This document shows, one piece after another, positions 1 through 27,854 of a DNA stretch of 54,331 nt; position 1 is the first letter of the stretch, and every line of letters begins with the position of its first letter. The notes under the pieces are model-generated. The model was given only the letters and a program-made list of their open reading frames with translations, searched no databases and was not told the DNA's origin. The stretch covers positions 1-54,331 of the forward strand of contig JACZYG010000002.1 of the NCBI GenBank assembly GCA_022571215.1, given 5' to 3'. The stretch comes from Fidelibacterota bacterium (GTDB taxonomy: Bacteria; Fidelibacterota; SORT01). The translations under genes and the position numbers were made by a program.

Positions 1-983
1 CGGTAAAATGGACTAACACCAATTTGAACATAAGAGCACCCATCACCTACAGTGATGCCACCGGATACTTGCCCGCGGAGAGTTACATGCAGCCATGGAC
101 CGGCTACTGGGTGAGAAACAGTTCGTCGACTTTCCAAACGTTAACAATTGAACCCATTTTACACACCGGCAGTGTACGAAATTTGGGGAAGAGTGTTCAA
201 TTCGACCCGCTCGAAAACCTTGAAGCCACGCGTATCGTGGAAAACGGTGGATGGTTCGTAAACATCTCGCTGACTACTAAAATCTACGGCGACCAATTCA
301 ATCAGATCGGCGCGGTGGAAAACGCCGAGGATGGTTACGATAGCTACGATAGCCATGAATTGCCCAGAATGGGGGACTATGTAAACTTGTATTTCCCGCA
401 TGAGGACTGGGGTGAAAATTCAGCCAACTACACAACGGATATGAGAAATGCTCAACAGCAGGGTTATACATGGGATTTCGAAGTGAAGACTAACTTACCC
501 AAAGAGGATATGGAAATAGCGATACAGAATATTGAGATGGTTCCCGCGGGAATGGAAGTCGTATTGATCGACCTCGATTATAGGATCGCCCAGGATATCA
601 GGAATTCTTCACTTTATAGCTTCATTTCGGGGACAAGCGAAGATCCGAAGCGTTTCAAACTGCTTATCGGGAAAAGCGGATATATCGGTGAGAACAATGA
701 CGGGATTTCTGTCATACCAAAGACGTATTCGTTATCGCAGAATTTTCCGAACCCTTTCAATCCATCGACAACAATTACATACTCCCTGCCGGAAGCGGCT
801 CATGTGAATATACAGATTTATAACATTCTCGGAGAACGCGTTGTAACTCTTGTAAACGAGCGAACGGACGCCGGCAGTCATGTGGTGACATGGAACGCTG
901 GAAACGCTGCTACGGGAATCTATTTTTACAGGATTCGGGCTGGAAATTACCATGACGTCAAGAAGATGCTATTGATAAAGTAA
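1..983 (+). CDS. Secreted protein with C-terminal type IX secretion sorting domain (5' end missing)
   Basis: The reading frame is open to the left edge of the window (first full codon at base 3), so the TTG at 24 is probably not the start and the N-terminus lies outside. The last ~85 residues are a textbook type A T9SS sorting domain: QNFPNPFNPSTTITY, then IYNILGERV, then GIYFYRIRAG and a terminal KKMLLIK. Such domains send proteins through the type IX secretion pore and are then removed or anchored at the cell surface (family knowledge). The upstream part (GYLPAESYMQPWTGYWVRN) resembles the conserved stretch found just before the sorting domain in many FCB surface proteins, and no enzymatic domain is visible. 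Its own function is unknown; export by T9SS is well supported. Confidence 0.85.
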   Translation, partial: VKWTNTNLNIRAPITYSDATGYLPAESYMQPWTGYWVRNSSSTFQTLTIEPILHTGSVRNLGKSVQFDPLENLEATRIVENGGWFVNISLTTKIYGDQFNQIGAVENAEDGYDSYDSHELPRMGDYVNLYFPHEDWGENSANYTTDMRNAQQQGYTWDFEVKTNLPKEDMEIAIQNIEMVPAGMEVVLIDLDYRIAQDIRNSSLYSFISGTSEDPKRFKLLIGKSGYIGENNDGISVIPKTYSLSQNFPNPFNPSTTITYSLPEAAHVNIQIYNILGERVVTLVNERTDAGSHVVTWNAGNAATGIYFYRIRAGNYHDVKKMLLIK

Positions 984-2179: not shown

Positions 2180-3538
2180 CTGCATAATATATCAATTAGA
2201 GTTGTTTCAGCGATTCTGTTTCTATCTGTTTTTAATATAACAGCGCTGCACTCTCAAGTCTTTAGCGGTCGATTTACAACTTCTATGTATAGCTGGGAAC
2301 GGCAAGATTCACCAACGGTGTCTTCAGGGCATCTTCGAGTCTATCAATTGGCGTCTCTAAAAGCGATTGACTTCGGCGTAACTGATCTATCGATAGTCGG
2401 CAAGTTCGGATATTCAACAGATATCAGCACTGAAGCGCTGAATGATCCGAGACTTAGAGTAGTAAACTTGTACCTGAAATACAAAGTGAATAAGAATAAT
2501 ATCTTTTATTTGGGCCGACAACGGATTTACTCCGGAGCCGTTACGGTTGCGTACGATGGTTTTAGATTCAGTAGCAAAAGCATCACAAATTTGAATATCG
2601 AAGGATACTGGGGGACGAACGTTCCTAACGACAGAGGCATTGAAGTTTTAGCTGTAAAAGAAAATCAAGTCCTCGGAGCGAAATTGTCATACAGACACTT
2701 TATGGGTTTTAACTTTTCGCTTTCATACTCGGACATAAGGCGATTGCCTGCCGCCTACGCTGATTTCGGAAAATTCACCGGTAAAAAATTAGAGCGGCAA
2801 GCAACTCAAGAACGGCTTCTCGGAGCGAATCTGCAACGGAAGTTCGCAGATAAATTTAATCTATATTCACGTATCCTGCTTAACTATGCGGCTCCAGTTA
2901 TCGGTTCGGGGAAACCCGGATTTAGGCATTTTCAAAAATTTGAACTCAGAGGAAAATATACGCATAACGCTGAAATATCGTTTACAACTGAATACCTTAT
3001 CAGAAGACCGAGGCTAAATGAGAACAGCATTTTCTGGGTATTCAATCAGAGAAGCTTCTCAGAGTTTGGAGGAAAACTTCATTACCGGATAGATCCCCGA
3101 ATTTCCTTTTACGCCGGTTTATCGCTTGTCAAATATGATAAAAAATTAAGTTTTGAAGGATTAGAAGATTCAAGTTTACGACTGAACGCAGGAATGAATA
3201 TGCGAGGCTTCTCTCTATTTCTATCAGGCAGAAGCGGATATGCGGGAGAAAGTAAATCAGGCGGATTTTCGTACGCAGCCAGCTTGAGTAAAAGGAACAA
3301 TGTCCGAGCCGGTGTAAACTACAACCGGTATAAAATAAACTCTGATGCGGATGAAGATAACAATTCAAAATCCGCATTTATCGGAATTACGCACAGAATA
3401 AACAGTAGAATTTGGGGAGATTTTGACATCAGATTCCTTTCACAGGATATTACCAGCCAACGCGATTTTTTCGGTTACTCAAGCGATGTGCGATTTTTCG
3501 CAAGAGTGAACTACAGTTTCAGGGCAAAGAGAAATTAA
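2180..3538 (+). CDS. Outer-membrane beta-barrel (porin-like) partner of the multiheme cytochrome
   Basis: About 452 residues, rich in alternating aromatic/polar strands (for example FGYSTDIS, VNLYLKYKV, FYAGLSLVKY, ARVNYSFRAK), as expected for a large outer-membrane barrel; I do not recognise a named family. The first ATG (2285) would remove a signal peptide. Reading upstream gives a hydrophobic segment VVSAILFLSVFNITALHSQ that ends like a signal-peptidase I site. The best start is a CTG at 2180, three bases after a very strong ribosome binding site (GGGAGGGGAG, 2167-2176); there is no in-frame ATG, GTG or TTG between the stop at 2159 and this segment. It ends one base before the 14-heme cytochrome gene, so the two are surely co-transcribed. 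By analogy with porin-cytochrome (MtrAB-like) conduits it may sheath or anchor the cytochrome across the outer membrane. Confidence 0.7.
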   Translation: MHNISIRVVSAILFLSVFNITALHSQVFSGRFTTSMYSWERQDSPTVSSGHLRVYQLASLKAIDFGVTDLSIVGKFGYSTDISTEALNDPRLRVVNLYLKYKVNKNNIFYLGRQRIYSGAVTVAYDGFRFSSKSITNLNIEGYWGTNVPNDRGIEVLAVKENQVLGAKLSYRHFMGFNFSLSYSDIRRLPAAYADFGKFTGKKLERQATQERLLGANLQRKFADKFNLYSRILLNYAAPVIGSGKPGFRHFQKFELRGKYTHNAEISFTTEYLIRRPRLNENSIFWVFNQRSFSEFGGKLHYRIDPRISFYAGLSLVKYDKKLSFEGLEDSSLRLNAGMNMRGFSLFLSGRSGYAGESKSGGFSYAASLSKRNNVRAGVNYNRYKINSDADEDNNSKSAFIGITHRINSRIWGDFDIRFLSQDITSQRDFFGYSSDVRFFARVNYSFRAKRN

Positions 3539-3539
3539 A

Positions 3540-4727
3540 ATGAGCAGTAGAGTATTATTCAGACTATTTGCTATAGGTTTTTTAGTTCTATCGGGATTTC
3601 ATTCATTCACAAACGGTCAGACCGTTCCGCAGGATCGCTCAAAGGTGATTATTTTCTCCCACAGACTTCATGCTGAGGATGCGGGAGCTGAATGCCTCGA
3701 TTGTCATCTGAATGTAGACAGAAGTTTGACAGCTATAGACAATAATCTACCGACAATGGCGCAATGTTATTCGTGTCATGAGGAAGACGACACAGATTGC
3801 GAAGTGTGCCACGTGACGGATGACTATGTGGAATTTTCTAATCCGGCTCGGGATATAAAATTCAACCATTCACTGCACATTTCCAAAGAGGGTCTGGATT
3901 GCCTCACCTGCCACAAAGGGATCAATGAGGTAGACCTGGCATCAAGCGAACAGCTTCCAGAGATGCGGCAATGCATGGAATGCCATAATGAAGCCACAGC
4001 TTCAAACGATTGCGCTGTTTGCCACATAATCACTGACTTAACATTTTTAAAACCTGAAAGTCATTTATCAGACTGGAAATTTGCCCACGCTCCGGAGGCG
4101 CAATTCAGACTGGGTGATTGTTCAATGTGTCATCAGGAGAGCTTCTGCGAGGAATGCCATGATGTTGATGAATTGATAACGGTCGGAGGTGACCGTACAG
4201 GCTCATTTTCTCCAAACGCTACAAAATTGGGCGGTTCAGCCGGACAAACTCTGAACATGGTACATGCGATCGATTACAGATACACTCACTCTCTTGACGC
4301 GAAAAGTAAGCTGATGGATTGCGCCGTATGTCATGAGACAAACGATTTTTGCAGCAAATGCCATAATCCCGAGGATGATGATCATAGGTTTGAACCGACC
4401 TGGCACGGCGGCGCGGATTGGGGAGCAATCGCAGGAGGTGTAGGCAGCGGGGGTGGAAGGCACGGTGAAATGGCGAGGAGAGATATGGAACTCTGCGCTT
4501 CCTGTCATGATATTGACGGGGAAGACCCGGTATGTCTATCGTGTCATTTTGACGCAAATCCTGGTATTGGAAATGATCCAAAAACTCATGAGTCCGATTT
4601 TATGAAAGACAGTAATGGGGAGTGGCACTCAGATGAAAATTATCTGTGCTATAACTGTCATTCAGTCGGGAGATTCCAGGCGGGTACAGGCTTTTGCGGA
4701 TATTGTCATGGTCCGAAGGAAGGTTAA
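3540..4727 (+). CDS. Periplasmic multiheme cytochrome c with 14 CxxCH motifs
   Basis: 395 residues with an N-terminal signal peptide (FRLFAIGFLVLSGFHSFTNGQ) and fourteen CxxCH heme-attachment motifs: CLDCH, CYSCH, CEVCH, CLTCH, CMECH, CAVCH, CSMCH, CEECH, CAVCH, CSKCH, CASCH, CLSCH, CYNCH, CGYCH. Extra histidines in FSHRLH, FNHSLH, KFAHAP and YTHSLD precede heme groups in the class III (c3/c7) pattern and are likely distal ligands. About one heme per 28 residues is the density of an electron wire rather than an enzyme. There is no lipobox, so it is probably periplasmic or inserted in its barrel partner. It sits one base after the barrel gene and six before a monoheme lipoprotein. Role inferred: electron transfer between periplasm and outside; direction and substrate cannot be told. 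Confidence 0.92.
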   Translation: MSSRVLFRLFAIGFLVLSGFHSFTNGQTVPQDRSKVIIFSHRLHAEDAGAECLDCHLNVDRSLTAIDNNLPTMAQCYSCHEEDDTDCEVCHVTDDYVEFSNPARDIKFNHSLHISKEGLDCLTCHKGINEVDLASSEQLPEMRQCMECHNEATASNDCAVCHIITDLTFLKPESHLSDWKFAHAPEAQFRLGDCSMCHQESFCEECHDVDELITVGGDRTGSFSPNATKLGGSAGQTLNMVHAIDYRYTHSLDAKSKLMDCAVCHETNDFCSKCHNPEDDDHRFEPTWHGGADWGAIAGGVGSGGGRHGEMARRDMELCASCHDIDGEDPVCLSCHFDANPGIGNDPKTHESDFMKDSNGEWHSDENYLCYNCHSVGRFQAGTGFCGYCHGPKEG

Positions 4728-4733
4728 CTGATT

Positions 4734-5096
4734 ATGACCGCAAGTAAAAAATATAAAGCGCTATTTTTCGTTTTAATCATGTTCGTAATCATTAGCGGTT
4801 GCAGTGAATTAAATGATGCTCCACCTGAAGTAGTAGCAGAAAACTTGACGTACACCAATGACATGAAGGAAATTTTTGATAATAATTGTATCCAATGTCA
4901 TATTGGAGACACGCCTCCCGCGGGATATAACATGACAAGCTATGAGGGAGTTATCAGTAAGGCGACTGCCGGAGACCCGAATTCTATCCTGGTTATAGTC
5001 TCCGATGACGGCGGTTCAATGCATATCTACTATGATTCCGAACAGGAAATTGAGAAGGTGATACAATGGGTTGTGGAAGACAGTCTTGCCCAATGA
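4734..5096 (+). CDS. Monoheme c-type cytochrome lipoprotein
   Basis: 120 residues. A lipoprotein signal (FVLIMFVIISGC, lipidated Cys at about residue 23) is followed by one heme motif, NCIQCH (about 51-56), in a short cytochrome-like domain; the methionine in GGSMHIYY is a plausible sixth ligand. It resembles the small cytochrome c domains called planctomycete-type (PSD1-like), which often sit at the cell surface (family knowledge). It follows the 14-heme gene by six bases, so it is very likely its operon partner and could be a docking electron carrier on the membrane. Confidence 0.8.
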   Translation: MTASKKYKALFFVLIMFVIISGCSELNDAPPEVVAENLTYTNDMKEIFDNNCIQCHIGDTPPAGYNMTSYEGVISKATAGDPNSILVIVSDDGGSMHIYYDSEQEIEKVIQWVVEDSLAQ

Positions 5097-5222
5097 ATCG
5101 AATCTGAATTTATCATCTGAGAAGTAAAGAAAATATATTTTTCTGAAACGGTTCAAATTTATTAACCTGATTCCTTAGATTTTCAATTATCAGATTTGGG
5201 AATTCGATTATGAAATTTAATA

Positions 5223-5330
5223 GAATCCGATTCAGAAAGTTACAAATTCGGCAGTGAATATTAAAATAATAATAACAGTTAAATACAATAATATTAACAA
5301 TATACAAATATTATATCCGGAATCAGATTC
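5223..5330. promoter_or_regulatory. Pair of GAATCnGATTC palindromes (candidate operators)
   Basis: GAATCCGATTC at 5223-5233 and GAATCAGATTC at 5320-5330 are perfect 5+1+5 palindromes, 97 bases apart centre to centre. If transcription starts near 5369 as the sigma-54-like element suggests, they lie near -141 and -44. The upstream one is at a usual distance for an enhancer-binding activator. A one-mismatch copy at 2086 precedes the porin gene. Function is inferred from position and recurrence only. Confidence 0.35.
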
Positions 5331-5343
5331 GATAAGAAATTAA

Positions 5344-5358
5344 TGGCACGATAGTTGT
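5344..5358 (+). promoter_or_regulatory. Sigma-54-like -24/-12 element
   Basis: TGGCACG, four bases, then TTGT matches the sigma-54 consensus TGGCACG-N4-TTGC except at the last base shown. The -24 half is perfect; the critical GC of the -12 half reads GT. It ends 45 bases before the heme lipoprotein gene, a sensible distance. Confidence 0.4.
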
Positions 5359-5403
5359 CATATTATCATTGAAGAAGGTTACAGAATAGAGAGGTGAAAT
5401 AAA

Positions 5404-6534
5404 ATGAGAAAACTAATAATATATATAACGATGATAATTCTGATGGCATTGTGGTTTATCGGTTGCAGTGAAGACGAAGTAATCGGACCAGTCTACGATG
5501 ATAATGTTCTTTTATCAACGAAGGTGACAACTTCACCCGTAATGGACGGAAGTGTAGACGCTTTATGGGCGGATGCTATGACACTGACGATAAGCGACGT
5601 AACCGTTCCGAATTATTCATTCTTTTGGAGTGATTATATCGGAGATACATACACCGTTACCGCAAAATCGGTTTACACCGACAGTGATGTCTATTTTCTC
5701 TTTGAGTGGACCGGCGACGCGGAAGAGTCGTTAGAACGAGAATCATGGTATTTCAATGACAGCGCGAATAAATGGATGCAGAAACCGAAAAAAGAACCTG
5801 ATGAGTATGGTGTAAATCCTGCTTATGAGGACAAGTTCGCTGTCTTATGGAACATGAATAACAGTATCGCAAATTATAATACTCAAGGTTGCGGCGTAAT
5901 ATGCCATGGCGAGTATATGGCTACGAACGCCGAAGGTGAATACGGCGATATGTGGCACTGGAAACGGGTAAGAACAGCTCCGATGCACATGGTGGATGAT
6001 AAATGGCTGACGTATTCGACAGGCAATGGTCGCAAATCCGATCCAAAAGATGGCGGTGGTTACAGTAACAATAAGCAAACTATTGCTGTAGGCAGCGCGG
6101 AATTTACTGTTCCCAAGTATTGGATACCGGGACGAACTGATTACCATTGGATCCTTGACACCGAGATAGCGGACGGAACTGCCAAGTTGATAGTGTCAAT
6201 TGACACTACAACGATGGAGCTTACTGACGAAGCCGGCAATACTATTTCCCCGGGAGATTATTCGGTGAGTTCAGATAAGTTGATGCCGAGCGTTACTGTA
6301 GAACCGTTTGTGGGTGATAGAGGTGATGTGGCAGCGTATCAAAATTATTCTGGCGGAAAATGGACTCTCGAGTTGAAGAGGAGTTTGGTTACGGGTAATA
6401 CGGGTAACGATGTCCAATTTGATGATATGGATAAAGAATACTACTTCTCAATAGCGGTCTTTGATGCCGCTGCAATTGCTCATGCGATTCCAGGCGGAAT
6501 GGTTGGAAATACGTATAAGTTGCAATTTGAATAA
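5404..6534 (+). CDS. Ethylbenzene-dehydrogenase-type heme-binding lipoprotein
   Basis: 376 residues. It begins with a lipoprotein signal (MALWFIGC, Cys at about residue 21). The rest fits the EB_dh domain (heme-binding gamma-subunit fold of ethylbenzene/DMSO-reductase-family enzymes): DALWADA near the start, YTDSDVYFLFEW, EDKFAVLWNM, the GDMWHWKRVRTAPM block, and KWTLELKR near the end. A c-type-like motif CGVICH (163-168) has three rather than two residues between the cysteines. I recall a similar CxxxCH at this place in other membrane-anchored members, so it may carry a covalent heme besides the heme b held by Met/Lys-type ligands. No molybdoenzyme gene is next to it. It follows the porin-cytochrome genes after a 307-base control region and ends at a strong terminator. 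Likely an envelope electron-transfer protein; the partner is unknown. Confidence 0.8.
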   Translation: MRKLIIYITMIILMALWFIGCSEDEVIGPVYDDNVLLSTKVTTSPVMDGSVDALWADAMTLTISDVTVPNYSFFWSDYIGDTYTVTAKSVYTDSDVYFLFEWTGDAEESLERESWYFNDSANKWMQKPKKEPDEYGVNPAYEDKFAVLWNMNNSIANYNTQGCGVICHGEYMATNAEGEYGDMWHWKRVRTAPMHMVDDKWLTYSTGNGRKSDPKDGGGYSNNKQTIAVGSAEFTVPKYWIPGRTDYHWILDTEIADGTAKLIVSIDTTTMELTDEAGNTISPGDYSVSSDKLMPSVTVEPFVGDRGDVAAYQNYSGGKWTLELKRSLVTGNTGNDVQFDDMDKEYYFSIAVFDAAAIAHAIPGGMVGNTYKLQFE

Positions 6535-6571
6535 CATCAAAGCATAGTCAAGCAATAGAAAAACAGTAGGT

Positions 6572-6597
6572 AAGCGAGCCGGAACTCCGGCTCGCTT
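6572..6597 (+). terminator. Rho-independent terminator after the heme lipoprotein gene
   Basis: A perfect 12-bp stem, AAGCGAGCCGGA (6572-6583) with TCCGGCTCGCTT (6586-6597) around a 2-base gap, followed by ATTTCTATT. It is the strongest terminator-like structure in the window and closes the heme cluster. Confidence 0.85.
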
Positions 6598-6819
6598 ATT
6601 TCTATTACTGAACGATATTCCTGAAAAGTTATCCGAACGGTAATAAAAATATGATTTCTTACTCACTCTTCCAGCTTTTAATTCACCAAGTGAGCAGCTA
6701 TTAAATTCAAAAGAGAATTGTATTTGTCTGACGTTTTATCTATTATATCACTTGAATAATATATAAAGAATCACAAGAAAAAAATAAGAATGCTCGGTCC
6801 AAAGCAGTTGGAGGTCACA

Positions 6820-22861: not shown

Positions 22862-25165
22862 CTATTTGTTTTTAAGAATCTTCCAGATTTTTTCAGGCGT
22901 TATCGGCAGAGAGCGTACTCTTGCTCTTACGGCATTGCTGACGGCGTTAGCTATTGCCGGCGCCGGTCCGCTGATAGGGACTTCTGCCACGGCTTTTGCT
23001 CCGTAAGGGCCTGTCGGTTCATACGTTTCCACGAGGATTACTTCTATCTCGGGCATGTCGGATGACCTGAATATATTGTAATCCCTGAATGATTTGAATA
23101 GCGGATTCCCGTTTTTATCAAACGGCATGAACTCAGAAAGAGCATAGCCCATTCCCTGAGTGATTGCTCCTTCTACCTGACCTTCAGCCATTTGGGGATT
23201 GATGGCTACGCCGCAATCAACGGCTGCGACCAACTTTAGCAGCCTGATCTGACCCGTGTCATCATCCACCTCGACGTCTGCGAATACGGCTGAATACGGG
23301 GGAGGCGATTCGGGACTCACGTTATTTCCAACAGCCATAATCTGGAACTGGTTGTGTTGGTATAATGAGTAAAGGCAAATTTGCTCATACGTGACGATTT
23401 TACCCTCTTGAGTGCTTACCTTACTATCGGAGCAGACCAGATGTTCCTTTTCAACCTCAAGCATTTCGCCGGCAACGTCCATGATTTGTGATTTGACCTT
23501 TTTGGCTGCATCAAGAACCGCCGCTCCTGAGATGTAGGTGGTGCTTGAAGCATACGCTCCGGTGTCAAACGGTGTCATATCGGTGTCTGAACTGTAAACG
23601 AGTATATTATCGACCGGGATGGATAGAGCTTCCGCCGCGATCTGGGCGAGCGCCGTATCCGAGCCGGTACCGATATCGGTTGCGCCGCATAACAGGTTGA
23701 ACGATCCGTCTTCGTTCATCTTGATAGAACATGCCGCCATATCCACGTTAGGAATACCTGAGCCTTGAGTGTTGATGGCGATTCCTATGCCCCGTGATCT
23801 TCCCGCGGCTGTCGGTTCGCGGGAGATGCCCCAACCGATGGCTTTAGCGCCTCTTTTAATGCACTCCTCTAAACCTGAAGAGCGAATCAGTTGTGCGTCG
23901 GAACCTTCACCTTCAGCCATTTCGCCGGTTATCGGTATTCTGTCGCCCTCATGATATATATTTTTCAGCCGAAATTCAATCTGGTCAATTCCGAGTTCAT
24001 CAGCGATCTCGTCAATATGCGATTCCAAAGCGAATATCCCCTGTGGTGTACCGTAACCCCGGAAAGCTCCGGCAACAGGAAGATTAGTGTATACCGCTTC
24101 TCCACTGAATTTTATATTTGGAATGTTATACATCGAAAATATCTTATTCCCCGTAACTGTCATTACGGTCAGCGCATGAGTGCCGTAAGCTCCGGTGTTT
24201 TCTATGACCCTGACATCCATCGCGAGAATCTTACCGTCTTCTGATACGGCGGTTTTGAAAAAGAGTTTTTGCGGATGCCTTGTCCGGGACGCGTAAAGCT
24301 CCTCCTCTCTCGTCATCCAAAAGCGAACGGCTTTTCCCGTTGCCAGGGTGAGAGCTCCACAGAGTTCCTCGTTTAATATTTCCTGCTTACCGCCGAAACC
24401 GCCGCCGACACGAGGTTTTATAACCCGAATCTTTTTCACGGGCAATTGCAGTACGTTTGCTACGATTCTTCTAACGTGAAACGGCACCTGCGTGCTTGAC
24501 CGTATTACGAGCCTCTCGTCCTCGTCTAACCAGGTTATGCAAATATGCGGTTCTATCGAGGATTGTTGAACGTAGCCGACTTCGTAATGCTTCTCGAATA
24601 TTTTATATGCGTCCTTGAACGCTTTTTCAACATCTCCGAATGAAGCTTCAAGATGCGACGCGATGTTGGAAGATTTATCGTAGATTCCGCTTGAATCTTC
24701 CTCGTCATGGATGACAATTGCGCCGGGTTTAGATGCCTTTTCAGGGTCAAATACCGCCTCGAGTGTTTCGTAATCGACATCAATGAGAGAGCAGGCTTTC
24801 GCGGCAATTCCGGGAGTTTCGGCAGCGACCGCCGCGACCCGGTCACCAACGAATCTAACCTTGTTATCAAGAACGAATGCGTCATAAGGGGACGGTTCGG
24901 GCCATCCCTGACCTGCGGTAGTGTGAGGAACTCTCGGCAAGTCCTCATGAGTAAGCACGGCATGAACTCCCCTGAGAGCCTTGGCATTGGAAGTGTCAAT
25001 TGATAAAATTCGAGCGTGCGGATGCGGACTTCTCAGAACCTTCGCATGAAGTAATTCACGGAATTCTATATCATCGCTGAATGCTCCTTTACCACGGGCT
25101 AACTTTTCTCCGTCCACTCGCGGAGTGACCTTGCCTACGATCCGATAATCTTTTGAACCGCTCAA
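22862..25165 (-). CDS. Molybdenum-binding (large) subunit of a xanthine-dehydrogenase-type hydroxylase
   Basis: About 767 residues. The frame is open to 25330, but residues upstream of 25165 only shadow the small-subunit gene. The real start is the TTG at 25165-25163, whose last two bases are part of the small subunit's TGA, giving SGSKDYRIVGKVTPRVDG, the normal beginning of the family. Seen: KPRVGGGFGGKQE (cofactor contact), AFRGYGTPQ, a GxxxDIGTGSDTALAQIAAE segment and the C-terminal GPYGAKAVAEVP with the catalytic Glu. It hydroxylates purines, aldehydes or N-heterocycles with water as oxygen donor. The purine deaminase in the same operon favours xanthine or hypoxanthine, but the substrate is inferred. 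Confidence 0.9.
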   Translation of the reverse strand: MSGSKDYRIVGKVTPRVDGEKLARGKGAFSDDIEFRELLHAKVLRSPHPHARILSIDTSNAKALRGVHAVLTHEDLPRVPHTTAGQGWPEPSPYDAFVLDNKVRFVGDRVAAVAAETPGIAAKACSLIDVDYETLEAVFDPEKASKPGAIVIHDEEDSSGIYDKSSNIASHLEASFGDVEKAFKDAYKIFEKHYEVGYVQQSSIEPHICITWLDEDERLVIRSSTQVPFHVRRIVANVLQLPVKKIRVIKPRVGGGFGGKQEILNEELCGALTLATGKAVRFWMTREEELYASRTRHPQKLFFKTAVSEDGKILAMDVRVIENTGAYGTHALTVMTVTGNKIFSMYNIPNIKFSGEAVYTNLPVAGAFRGYGTPQGIFALESHIDEIADELGIDQIEFRLKNIYHEGDRIPITGEMAEGEGSDAQLIRSSGLEECIKRGAKAIGWGISREPTAAGRSRGIGIAINTQGSGIPNVDMAACSIKMNEDGSFNLLCGATDIGTGSDTALAQIAAEALSIPVDNILVYSSDTDMTPFDTGAYASSTTYISGAAVLDAAKKVKSQIMDVAGEMLEVEKEHLVCSDSKVSTQEGKIVTYEQICLYSLYQHNQFQIMAVGNNVSPESPPPYSAVFADVEVDDDTGQIRLLKLVAAVDCGVAINPQMAEGQVEGAITQGMGYALSEFMPFDKNGNPLFKSFRDYNIFRSSDMPEIEVILVETYEPTGPYGAKAVAEVPISGPAPAIANAVSNAVRARVRSLPITPEKIWKILKNK

Positions 25166-25620
25166 TCTAATCTGATTTCTTTTTTTATCGCTTCGACCGG
25201 CTTGACGTATCCTGTACATCTGCATAAAACACCGGAAATCGCCTCCCGTAAATCTTTTTCTAAGGGAGACACGGCGGTGTTCAAATAATGTCCCGCCAAT
25301 AAAAGCAGCGCCGGAGTGCAGTATCCGCACTGAATGGCGCCAACCTCAATAAACCTTTTCTGCAGCTCGGAGAGGTCTTGACGCGTAGATAACGCTTCAA
25401 CCGTCTTGATTTCTTTTCCATCCGCCTGGAGGGTTAAGGTAATACATGATGCTCTGGGTTCATCATCGATAAGAACCGCGCATGCTCCACATTCTCCGGA
25501 TTCGCATCCACGTTTAACGCTCGTTATTCCGTTTGAACGCAGAAAATCAAGGAGTGTTTGTGAAATGGGCACTTCCGTACGGATTTTTTTATCGTTAACG
25601 AATACGGATATATTCCTCAA
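25162..25620 (-). CDS. [2Fe-2S] (small) subunit of the xanthine-dehydrogenase-type enzyme
   Basis: 152 residues. The N-terminal ferredoxin-like domain has CESGECGAC ... C (Cys 39, 44, 47, 59); the C-terminal helical domain has CGYC ... CRC (98, 101, 133, 135), giving the two 2Fe-2S clusters that pass electrons from molybdenum to FAD. Length and motifs are normal. It overlaps the FAD subunit by four bases (ATGA) and the large subunit at its stop codon, so the three are translationally coupled. Confidence 0.95.
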   Translation of the reverse strand: MRNISVFVNDKKIRTEVPISQTLLDFLRSNGITSVKRGCESGECGACAVLIDDEPRASCITLTLQADGKEIKTVEALSTRQDLSELQKRFIEVGAIQCGYCTPALLLLAGHYLNTAVSPLEKDLREAISGVLCRCTGYVKPVEAIKKEIRLD

Positions 25621-26471
25621 CTGCCGCCTCTATTATCTTTGATCTTGTTGAGGACCCTTTCGATCAAAACGCCCGCCATAGCTTTTTTATATTCGGATGA
25701 GCCTTTAGGATCAAACGCGGGATCAACGATCTTCACTGCCAATCCTGAGACACTCTTTATCAATTTATCATCCAATTCTTTGCCGAGAAGCATTGCTTCC
25801 GCTTCTTCTAATCTGATCAATTTCTCTCCAATCGAAGAGAGAACAATGCGCACCGAATCAATTAAATTGACCGAGAATGTTAGATATAATGCGAGAGAGA
25901 TAAGTGGAGGAGAGGAAGGGATATAGCTTATTGACTCAAAAATCACCGAATGTATATTTGTAGGAGTTGAGATTTCTATGCCTGAAATAATGTGTTTTTC
26001 GTTTTGCAGTTCAGAATTATTCAGATAGTCCCAAAGTGTCACATCCTCACTCATTTTACCGAATAATATTACTGTCGCATCAACGGCAATCAATCCTGCA
26101 AGAAATGAGGAATCGCCTCTGCCGAGCGCTATCCTCCCGCCCACAGTCGAGGCGGAGTTTATTAGTCTGGTGCTACCCTCAGAAATGATGGTCTCCCGGA
26201 TAAATTCGTATGGATGGGAAGATGTTTCAGGAGCCGTGAGCAGGTCATTCAACGTCGTGGACGCTCCGATGTACATCGAAGTTTCTTCGAGTCTGATCTC
26301 TTTGATGCCTGATTCGGAGAGATCAACAATTCCTTTTACCTCAGATCCGCCGTAAGGTATAAGCCAAGTGCCGCCGCCGATAGGGAAGAATCCGTCATTC
26401 TCTTTAAGAAGTCGAGTCGCCTCGGTAAGTTTTTTTGGGCGGTAATAGTCGGTAAGTTTTGTTAATCCCAT
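25617..26471 (-). CDS. FAD-binding (medium) subunit of the xanthine-dehydrogenase-type enzyme
   Basis: 284 residues, the CoxM/XdhB type. Seen: the start LTDYYRPKKLTEATRLL, the FAD loop FFPIGGGTWLIPYG, MYIGASTTLNDLL and the second FAD loop STVGGRIALGRGDSSFLAGLIAVDA; the C-terminal CO-dehydrogenase flavoprotein domain follows. The second loop is divergent from the usual TxGGNL. It takes electrons from the iron-sulfur subunit and gives them to NAD+ or another acceptor. It begins 12 bases after the amidohydrolase gene and overlaps the small subunit by four bases. Confidence 0.9.
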   Translation of the reverse strand: MGLTKLTDYYRPKKLTEATRLLKENDGFFPIGGGTWLIPYGGSEVKGIVDLSESGIKEIRLEETSMYIGASTTLNDLLTAPETSSHPYEFIRETIISEGSTRLINSASTVGGRIALGRGDSSFLAGLIAVDATVILFGKMSEDVTLWDYLNNSELQNEKHIISGIEISTPTNIHSVIFESISYIPSSPPLISLALYLTFSVNLIDSVRIVLSSIGEKLIRLEEAEAMLLGKELDDKLIKSVSGLAVKIVDPAFDPKGSSEYKKAMAGVLIERVLNKIKDNRGGS

Positions 26472-26483
26472 ATCGCTACAAAG

Positions 26484-27854
26484 TTACATTATTTTATTTG
26501 AACGGCTAATCATATCTCGAGATATTTCGTCCGCTCTGACAGAAATTTCTTTAAGATTCAGACCTTTAAGTTCACCGTTCTCAACTATGACCTTTCCGTT
26601 TATTATTGACCAGGAAACTCGTTGAGCGCCTGTACAAAATATAATGGATGCGAGTGGATCGGATTTTGCTCCGGCGTATCCTATATCGCTGAGATCAATA
26701 AGGATGACATCAGCCGCGGCGCCCGGCTTGATCATACCGATGTTTTTTCTCCCGAGAATTTCCGCGCCGCCCAATGTGCCCATTCTAAGTACTTCAGCCG
26801 CAGACAGCCATCTGTCATCCTTCAGACGATGCAGCAGCATTGATTGACGGAGTTCATTCAACATATTCGAGCTATCGTTTGAAGCAGAGCCGTCCACACC
26901 GATTGACAGAGGTACTCCCGCATCGAGCATTTTAGCCACAGGAGCAATGCCTGAGCCTAATCTCATGTTTGAGGTAGCGCAGTGGGAGATTCCGGTTTTG
27001 GTTGCCGAGAGTTTTTCAATTTCCTTATCATTCAAATGTATACCGTGCGCAAACCAAACATCGTCTCCTAACCAACCGAGCGATTCAGCGAAATCAAGAG
27101 GTCTTTGACCGAAATTGTCAAGACAATATTTTTCCTCATCTACAGATTCCGCCAAATGGGTGTGCAGTCTTACATGATACTTGTCCGCAAGTTCCCGCGA
27201 TTTTTTCATGAGGTCAGCGGTGACAGAAAATGGCGAGCAGGGCGCAAGAGCCACTCTCAACATAGATAGCGGTTCGGGATCGTGATATTTTTCTATCAAT
27301 CGAATGGAATCATCTATGATCTCTTCTTCCGTCTGAATTACGCTGTCAGGAGGCAGACCGCCCGTACTTCTTCCTAAGGACATTGAACCCCGGGTAGGAT
27401 GGAATCGAATTCCGATCTCTAACGCCGCATCTATCTCTTTATCAATAAGATGCTTGGACGCAGCGGCAGGAAACAGATAGAGATGGTCGGAAGTGGTTGT
27501 ACAGCCGGATAATAACAATTCCGCCATTGCCACCTGAGCGCTTACAAAGACGGCTTCTTCAGTCAATTCTCCCCAAACCTCGTAAAGCGCCTCTAACCAT
27601 GGAAAAAGAGGCGCGTCCTGAACGCCGGGCAGATTTCGGGTAAGGGTCTGGAACATATGATGGTGCGTATTTACCAACCCGGGTAGAAGAACCATCCCTT
27701 TCGCGTCTATGATCATGTCGGCGTCAGGATGCTTTCCGGTTCCAACGGAGTCAATCTTGTTCCCCTTAATGAGAACCCAACCGGATTCAAAATTATCATA
27801 TTCCGAATTCATCGTAATGGTCAAAAGCGGATTTTTTATGAGTATACTTTTCAA
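26484..27854 (-). CDS. 8-oxoguanine deaminase-type amidohydrolase
   Basis: 456 residues of the amidohydrolase superfamily (ATZ/TRZ group). Metal ligands are all present: HHH in VNTHHHMFQTLTR (64-66), HTHLAES (231-237), His 270 in WFAHGIHL and Asp 321 in IGVDGSASND. The block LLSGCTTTSDHLYLFP and the NLPGVQDAPLFPWLEALY segment match 8-oxoguanine deaminases, which turn 8-oxoguanine into urate and ammonia; guanine or other aminated heterocycles are alternatives. First gene of the five-gene minus-strand operon with the molybdoenzyme, which fits purine or heterocycle breakdown. Confidence 0.85.
   Translation of the reverse strand: MKSILIKNPLLTITMNSEYDNFESGWVLIKGNKIDSVGTGKHPDADMIIDAKGMVLLPGLVNTHHHMFQTLTRNLPGVQDAPLFPWLEALYEVWGELTEEAVFVSAQVAMAELLLSGCTTTSDHLYLFPAAASKHLIDKEIDAALEIGIRFHPTRGSMSLGRSTGGLPPDSVIQTEEEIIDDSIRLIEKYHDPEPLSMLRVALAPCSPFSVTADLMKKSRELADKYHVRLHTHLAESVDEEKYCLDNFGQRPLDFAESLGWLGDDVWFAHGIHLNDKEIEKLSATKTGISHCATSNMRLGSGIAPVAKMLDAGVPLSIGVDGSASNDSSNMLNELRQSMLLHRLKDDRWLSAAEVLRMGTLGGAEILGRKNIGMIKPGAAADVILIDLSDIGYAGAKSDPLASIIFCTGAQRVSWSIINGKVIVENGELKGLNLKEISVRADEISRDMISRSNKIM

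What the first reader, a model, noticed from the sequence alone, without database searches (positions are those of the whole stretch)
2180..6534. Porin + 14-heme cytochrome + two heme lipoproteins: a candidate outer-membrane electron conduit
A barrel with no known family is one base from a 14-CxxCH cytochrome, followed at once by a monoheme lipoprotein and, after a control region, an EB_dh-type heme lipoprotein, closed by a strong terminator. This is the logic of a porin-cytochrome complex (MtrAB, Geobacter PCC), but the heme count, the barrel and the EB_dh partner do not match any of these that I know. It could be a new extracellular electron transfer route in the FCB group.
Basis: partly seen in the sequence, partly recalled or inferred. 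Interest (0 to 1): 0.75.

Follow-up and report, generated by a model that had tools for sequence, protein, structure and literature searches.

The report
Outer-membrane electron conduit with EB_dh lipoprotein
The four genes are real and the first two are a conserved pore-plus-heme-wire pair that very probably carries electrons through the outer membrane; the pair belongs to a porin-cytochrome type already described in Ignavibacterium, but its setting here (an uncultured Neomarinimicrobiota bacterium, a single-heme lipoprotein, an EB_dh heme lipoprotein and a quinol-oxidising operon) appears undescribed.

Summary
Observation confirmed. Barrel (2180-3538, CTG start), 14-CxxCH cytochrome (3540-4727), monoheme lipoprotein (4734-5096) and EB_dh lipoprotein (5404-6534; heme site CxxxCH, not CxxCH) are all there. 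The barrel models as a plug-less 22-strand barrel. It occurs in all 12 relatives that have the cytochrome (Fisher p = 8e-17 over 149 genomes), sits beside it in loci across the FCB group, and the two trees mirror each other (Mantel r = 0.88). The third slot is usually a heme lipoprotein: one heme in Neomarinimicrobiota, 4-28 in Ignavibacteria and others. In a same-family genome the triad lies in one operon with Rieske/cytochrome b/multiheme genes; the window's genome keeps that operon on another contig. So this is a porin-cytochrome (Pcc) conduit. What seems new: the phylum, the EB_dh lipoprotein (beside the cluster in 8 of 12 genomes, acidic surface-export-like N-terminus), the QrcABCD-like and cytochrome bc linkage, and a sigma-54 promoter shared by the EB_dh gene and the quinol operon. 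Direction and substrate of electron flow are not shown.

The parts
2180..3538 (+). outer-membrane beta-barrel (porin of a porin-cytochrome pair), signal peptide, CTG start
3540..4727 (+). 14-heme (CxxCH) c7/c3-type cytochrome, signal peptide; conduit wire
4734..5096 (+). monoheme c-type lipoprotein (cbb3-III-like), third slot of the cluster
5344..5358 (+). sigma-54 (-24/-12) promoter-like site TGGCACGATAGTTGT, 45 nt before the EB_dh ATG; one of only 5 such sites in the genome
5404..6534 (+). EB_dh-domain lipoprotein with one CxxxCH heme site and an acidic post-Cys tail (CSEDE)
6571..6598 (.). 12-bp GC-rich hairpin, likely transcription terminator
   Evidence: and direct reading

Best explanation
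A porin-cytochrome (Pcc-type) electron conduit. The 22-strand barrel forms a wide plug-less hole in the outer membrane; the 14-heme cytochrome, whose first ~170 residues are c7-like repeats probably facing the periplasm, threads its other hemes through the hole. The monoheme lipoprotein takes the slot that multiheme lipoproteins fill in Ignavibacteria and hands electrons on or off at the membrane. The EB_dh lipoprotein, probably surface-exposed, is an accessory redox or binding module. Electrons come from menaquinol through the Rieske/cytochrome b/9-heme, 11-heme and 4-heme operon on another contig of this genome and go to an unknown outside acceptor. Shown: gene content, pairing, conservation, operon linkage in a relative, shared promoter type. 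Predicted: barrel strand count. Inferred: complex formation, heme path, surface location, direction, substrate.
For: The barrel is found in all 12 genomes that have the full-length cytochrome (Fisher p 8e-17) and upstream of it in the 40 loci from KSB1, Calditrichota, Zixibacteria, Latescibacteria, Ignavibacteria/Melioribacteraceae, Bacteroidota, Chlorobiaceae and Neomarinimicrobiota (for one contig only the last barrel residues are held). Trees of the pair mirror each other (r 0.88, 0 of 2000 permutations). AlphaFold: 22 strands in 452 aa, no plug, pLDDT 80. The downstream slot is a heme lipoprotein in most loci. In same-family G004 the triad is contiguous with 4-heme, 11-heme, cytochrome b561-like, Rieske and cytochrome b-9-heme genes; the window's genome has that operon at C40 without the triad. 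Published Pcc porins have 18-22 strands and periplasmic partners 5-14 hemes.
Against: No complex was modelled; the cytochrome model is poor after residue ~170, so the heme path through the barrel is untested. A one-heme lipoprotein is a thin outer terminal. Fold search of the barrel gives generic porins and ushers at TM 0.3-0.5, no electron-conduit porin in the 50 hits shown. In the window's genome the triad is not next to the quinol operon. Direct homology to Geobacter OmbB/OmaB could not be tested. Tree agreement also reflects shared species history.
Confidence: 0.86

Rival explanations
1. Same conduit run inward: an outside donor (Fe(II), reduced sulfur, a partner cell) feeds electrons through the 14-heme protein to a QrcABCD-like menaquinone reductase.
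For: In several Neomarinimicrobiota the conduit genes follow directly on 4-heme, QrcA-like 5-heme, QrcB-like, QrcC-like and NrfD genes; Desulfovibrio Qrc reduces menaquinone with electrons from periplasmic cytochrome (PMC6303296).
Against: The closest relative with a contiguous cluster (G004) has Rieske/cytochrome b genes instead, the usual quinol-oxidising kind; the Qrc-like subunits score below the NCBIfam Qrc cut-offs; whether the window's own genome has a Qrc-like complex was not searched.
Confidence: 0.3
2. The EB_dh lipoprotein is the heme-b gamma subunit of a type II DMSO-reductase-family enzyme and the neighbourhood is a periplasmic reductase, not a conduit.
For: Pfam EB_dh domain, 114.6 bits.
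Against: No alpha/beta subunit in the neighbourhood; no NCBIfam gamma-subunit hit, whereas a true gamma subunit in the same genome sits with alpha, beta and chaperone genes (L094). It has a c-type CxxxCH site and a lipobox.
Confidence: 0.06
3. Ordinary substrate porin that happens to lie beside a periplasmic electron-storage cytochrome.
For: Fold hits are ordinary porins; Pfam has no electron-conduit family for this barrel.
Against: The pair is kept across phyla with mirrored trees and nearly abutting or overlapping stop and start; apart from one marginal fragment (G036, E 5e-4), no barrel copy was found without the cytochrome.
Confidence: 0.05

Closest known systems
Ignavibacterium album Pcc cluster IALB_1837-1840 (Shi et al. 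2014, PMC4245776)
   Same: porin with a ~400-aa, 14-heme periplasmic cytochrome, an outer-membrane cytochrome with atypical heme motifs and a further periplasmic cytochrome; our Ignavibacteria/Melioribacteraceae loci show that order, and their cytochromes are about 36-41% identical to the window's
   Different: the window has a monoheme lipoprotein in the third slot, no adjacent 4-heme gene, and an EB_dh lipoprotein; the IALB proteins themselves were not compared directly
Geobacter sulfurreducens Pcc (OmbB-OmaB-OmcB) and ExtABCD
   Same: logic of porin + periplasmic multiheme cytochrome + outer-membrane heme lipoprotein
   Different: 8-heme periplasmic and 12-heme outer partner in OmbB/OmaB/OmcB; sequence homology not tested here
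Shewanella MtrCAB
   Same: what it works like: a cytochrome threaded through a barrel
   Different: 10-heme MtrA and larger MtrB barrel; no MtrA match by profile or fold, no MtrB match to the barrel
Alternative complex III ActA / QrcA and Geobacter GSU1996-type cytochrome (PDB 6btm, 8k9e, 3ov0)
   Same: c7-type heme repeats, best matches of the 14-heme protein among solved structures
   Different: inner-membrane complex subunits or a free periplasmic wire, no barrel
DMSO-reductase type II gamma subunits (EbdC, TIGR03477)
   Same: EB_dh domain
   Different: heme b, soluble periplasmic, with alpha/beta partners (own knowledge); here a c-type site, a lipobox and no partners

Membership tests
[quoted passage not shown]
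   22 strands in the AlphaFold model, pLDDT 80; range from PMC4245776
Pcc porin-cytochrome complex | adjacent periplasmic c-type cytochrome with 5-14 hemes | tested here: met
   14 CxxCH, adjacent in relatives
Pcc porin-cytochrome complex | outer-membrane c-type cytochrome (optional, 1-15 hemes) | tested here: inconclusive
   monoheme lipoprotein in the right slot; location predicted from the lipobox only
Pcc porin-cytochrome complex | sequence homology to OmbB/OmaB | not tested
   no Geobacter or I. album sequence was obtained
Pcc porin-cytochrome complex | physical complex that moves electrons across the membrane | not testable with these tools
   needs biochemistry
Mtr/Mto/Pio | decaheme MtrA-type cytochrome | tested here: not met
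   14 hemes; NCBIfam DmsE-family decaheme model 17 bits against cut-off 192; no MtrA among solved-structure matches
Mtr/Mto/Pio | MtrB-type barrel | tested here: not met
   no MtrB sequence match, none in the 50 fold hits shown; 22 strands in 452 aa
DMSO-reductase type II gamma subunit | EB_dh domain | tested here: met
   PF09459 114.6 bits
DMSO-reductase type II gamma subunit | match to TIGR03477 and alpha/beta genes alongside | tested here: not met
Bacteroidota surface lipoprotein (LES signal) | polar residue then acidic run after the lipid-bearing Cys (SDDDD, SDDFE) | tested here: inconclusive
   CSEDE here and acidic tails in relatives, mean 3.0 acidic residues at +2 to +6 against 0.8 in 17 other predicted lipoproteins; whether this signal works in Neomarinimicrobiota is not known

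The most novel reading that the evidence does not exclude
EB_dh-domain c-type heme lipoproteins are a recurrent surface module of porin-cytochrome conduits in the FCB group, giving the conduit a specific outside substrate or docking partner, and Neomarinimicrobiota use such conduits wired to Qrc-like and cytochrome bc-like complexes for extracellular or interspecies electron transfer.
Probability: 0.4. Interest if true: 0.7.

Novelty: new variant of a known kind. Interest (0 to 1): 0.5.

Why it matters
Neomarinimicrobiota are abundant uncultured bacteria of low-oxygen waters and sediments; the library searches found no paper describing an electron conduit in them. The gene sets define a testable route from the quinone pool to the outside and a widespread 14-heme conduit family across the FCB group, with a candidate surface module (EB_dh lipoprotein) that no described conduit known to me has.

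Tried and rejected
Mtr membership: rejected on heme count, barrel and profile/fold searches. EB_dh as gamma subunit of a local molybdoenzyme: rejected. Homology of the monoheme lipoprotein to the multiheme third-slot proteins: only signal peptide/lipobox and heme-motif similarity, not shown. Fold search of the 14-heme model: low confidence (pLDDT 59), only ActA-type hits, not used as proof. Conserved repeats in the 5097-5403 gap: only weak inverted repeats, not shared with the same gene's upstream region in G004; the sigma-54 site was shared. A double-heme DNA pattern search found nothing because its spacing was too rigid. Papers on conduits in Neomarinimicrobiota/Marinimicrobia: none found. 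A stricter lipobox filter used for the control set missed the EB_dh proteins themselves, so that comparison is rough.

Full report
What is there. The barrel frame starts at CTG 2180 behind a strong ribosome-binding site; homologues have a similar signal peptide and first strand, so the ATG at 2285 is unlikely to be the start. The cytochrome has 14 CxxCH in 395 aa. The monoheme lipoprotein follows 6 bases on.

Pairing. In 149 genomes (own and relatives of the same phylum) the full-length cytochrome is in 12 and the barrel in 13, including those 12; Fisher p = 8e-17. A scan of genome contigs with the cytochrome profile gave 40 loci; the barrel profile matches the gene immediately upstream in these loci, through KSB1, Calditrichota, Zixibacteria, Latescibacteria, Ignavibacteria, Bacteroidota and Chlorobiaceae, often with overlapping stop and start. 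Some loci are the same contigs as the phylum genomes, so the two counts overlap; matching contig lengths also indicate that the window's phylum is Candidatus Neomarinimicrobiota (e.g. G135:C147 and JADFRD010000015.1, both 34,501 bases). Trees of the two proteins mirror each other (38 loci, r = 0.88). The window's pair and that of G004 group with Zixibacteria/KSB1/Calditrichota pairs rather than with the main Neomarinimicrobiota clade, so lateral transfer or old duplication is possible; support values were not inspected.

Barrel. AlphaFold with 11 relatives gives 22 strands, short turns, no plug, pLDDT 80, pTM 0.70. Pore width was not measured. Fold hits are generic large porins and ushers. Published Pcc porins have 18-22 predicted strands.

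Cytochrome. Best matches among solved structures are a Geobacter c7-type wire (3ov0) and alternative complex III ActA subunits (6btm, 8k9e); MtrA does not appear. The model is confident only to about residue 170.

Third slot. In Neomarinimicrobiota it is the monoheme lipoprotein; in Ignavibacteria, Melioribacteraceae, Bacteroidota and some KSB1 loci it is usually a lipoprotein with 4-28 hemes and at least one CxxxxCH. Several loci (for example L044, L049, L051) lack such a gene directly downstream or are cut there. The lipobox region is alike (CSELNDA against CSELNND) but homology beyond it is not shown.

EB_dh. EB_dh genes occur in 20 of 149 genomes, in 10 of the 12 with the cytochrome (p = 1e-8), and lie beside the conduit cluster in 8 of 12 (G000, G006, G011, G052, G056, G117, G135, G141; in G117 the cluster is split over two contigs); also near it in Calditrichota and Zixibacteria loci. 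Their tails after the lipid-bearing Cys are acidic (CSEDE, CDDEKDD, CSDDTDD), resembling the surface-export signal of Bacteroidota (SDDDD, SDDFE; PMC5080379); 17 other predicted lipoproteins average 0.8 acidic residues at +2 to +6 against 3.0 (small and not independent).

Wiring. In G004 (same family) the order is barrel, 14-heme, monoheme, 4-heme, 11-heme, cytochrome b561-like, Rieske, cytochrome b fused to a 9-heme part. The window's genome has the same operon at C40 with the conduit genes missing. In other Neomarinimicrobiota the cluster also holds 4-heme, QrcA-, QrcB-, QrcC- and NrfD-like genes. The exact pattern TGGCACG-N4-TTGY is found only 5 times in the window's genome (3 for the reversed control): one copy is 45 nt before the EB_dh gene, another heads the C40 operon beside an NtrC-type regulator. 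In G004 the slightly looser pattern TGGCAC-N5-TTGY (16 sites against 3) marks the same two genes. Other sites precede pilin and flagellar genes, known sigma-54 targets (own knowledge).

Known or new. Shi et al. 2014 described in I. album a Pcc cluster with a 400-aa 14-heme periplasmic cytochrome (IALB_1838), porin IALB_1839, outer cytochrome IALB_1837 with atypical motifs and a periplasmic IALB_1840. Our Ignavibacteria loci have that order. A 2020 study reports OmbB-like Pcc in Ignavibacteria (PMC7399161). Hence a known kind. Not found in the library: any conduit in Neomarinimicrobiota, or any EB_dh partner of one.

Direction. Rieske/cytochrome b linkage favours quinol oxidation and electron export; Qrc-like linkage in other members would also allow uptake. 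I put export at about two to one.

Noticed in passing
G000:C38:53516-56242 (L043:6517-9242): Second conduit in the same genome: barrel, 12-heme cytochrome and monoheme lipoprotein next to an OPT transporter; similar loci in G003 and G004.
   Followed up: partly
G000:C1 (L094:442-9048): A type II DMSO-reductase-family operon (1157-aa alpha, beta, chaperone-like gene, diheme EB_dh gamma subunit); substrate not clear.
   Followed up: partly
G000:C64 (L093:4620-7283): A third EB_dh protein with a collagen-like N-terminus beside diheme and CxxxCH proteins, another possible redox cluster.
   Followed up: no
window 24-983: Protein whose C-terminus looks like a type IX secretion sorting domain (NFPNPFNPSTTI ... 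KKMLLIK), typical of the FCB group.
   Followed up: no
window 2180-2182: The barrel appears to start at CTG; no ATG, GTG or TTG lies in frame before the signal peptide.
   Followed up: partly
window 22862-27854: Xanthine-dehydrogenase-like three-subunit cluster plus an amidohydrolase, perhaps purine catabolism; judged from sequence only.
   Followed up: no
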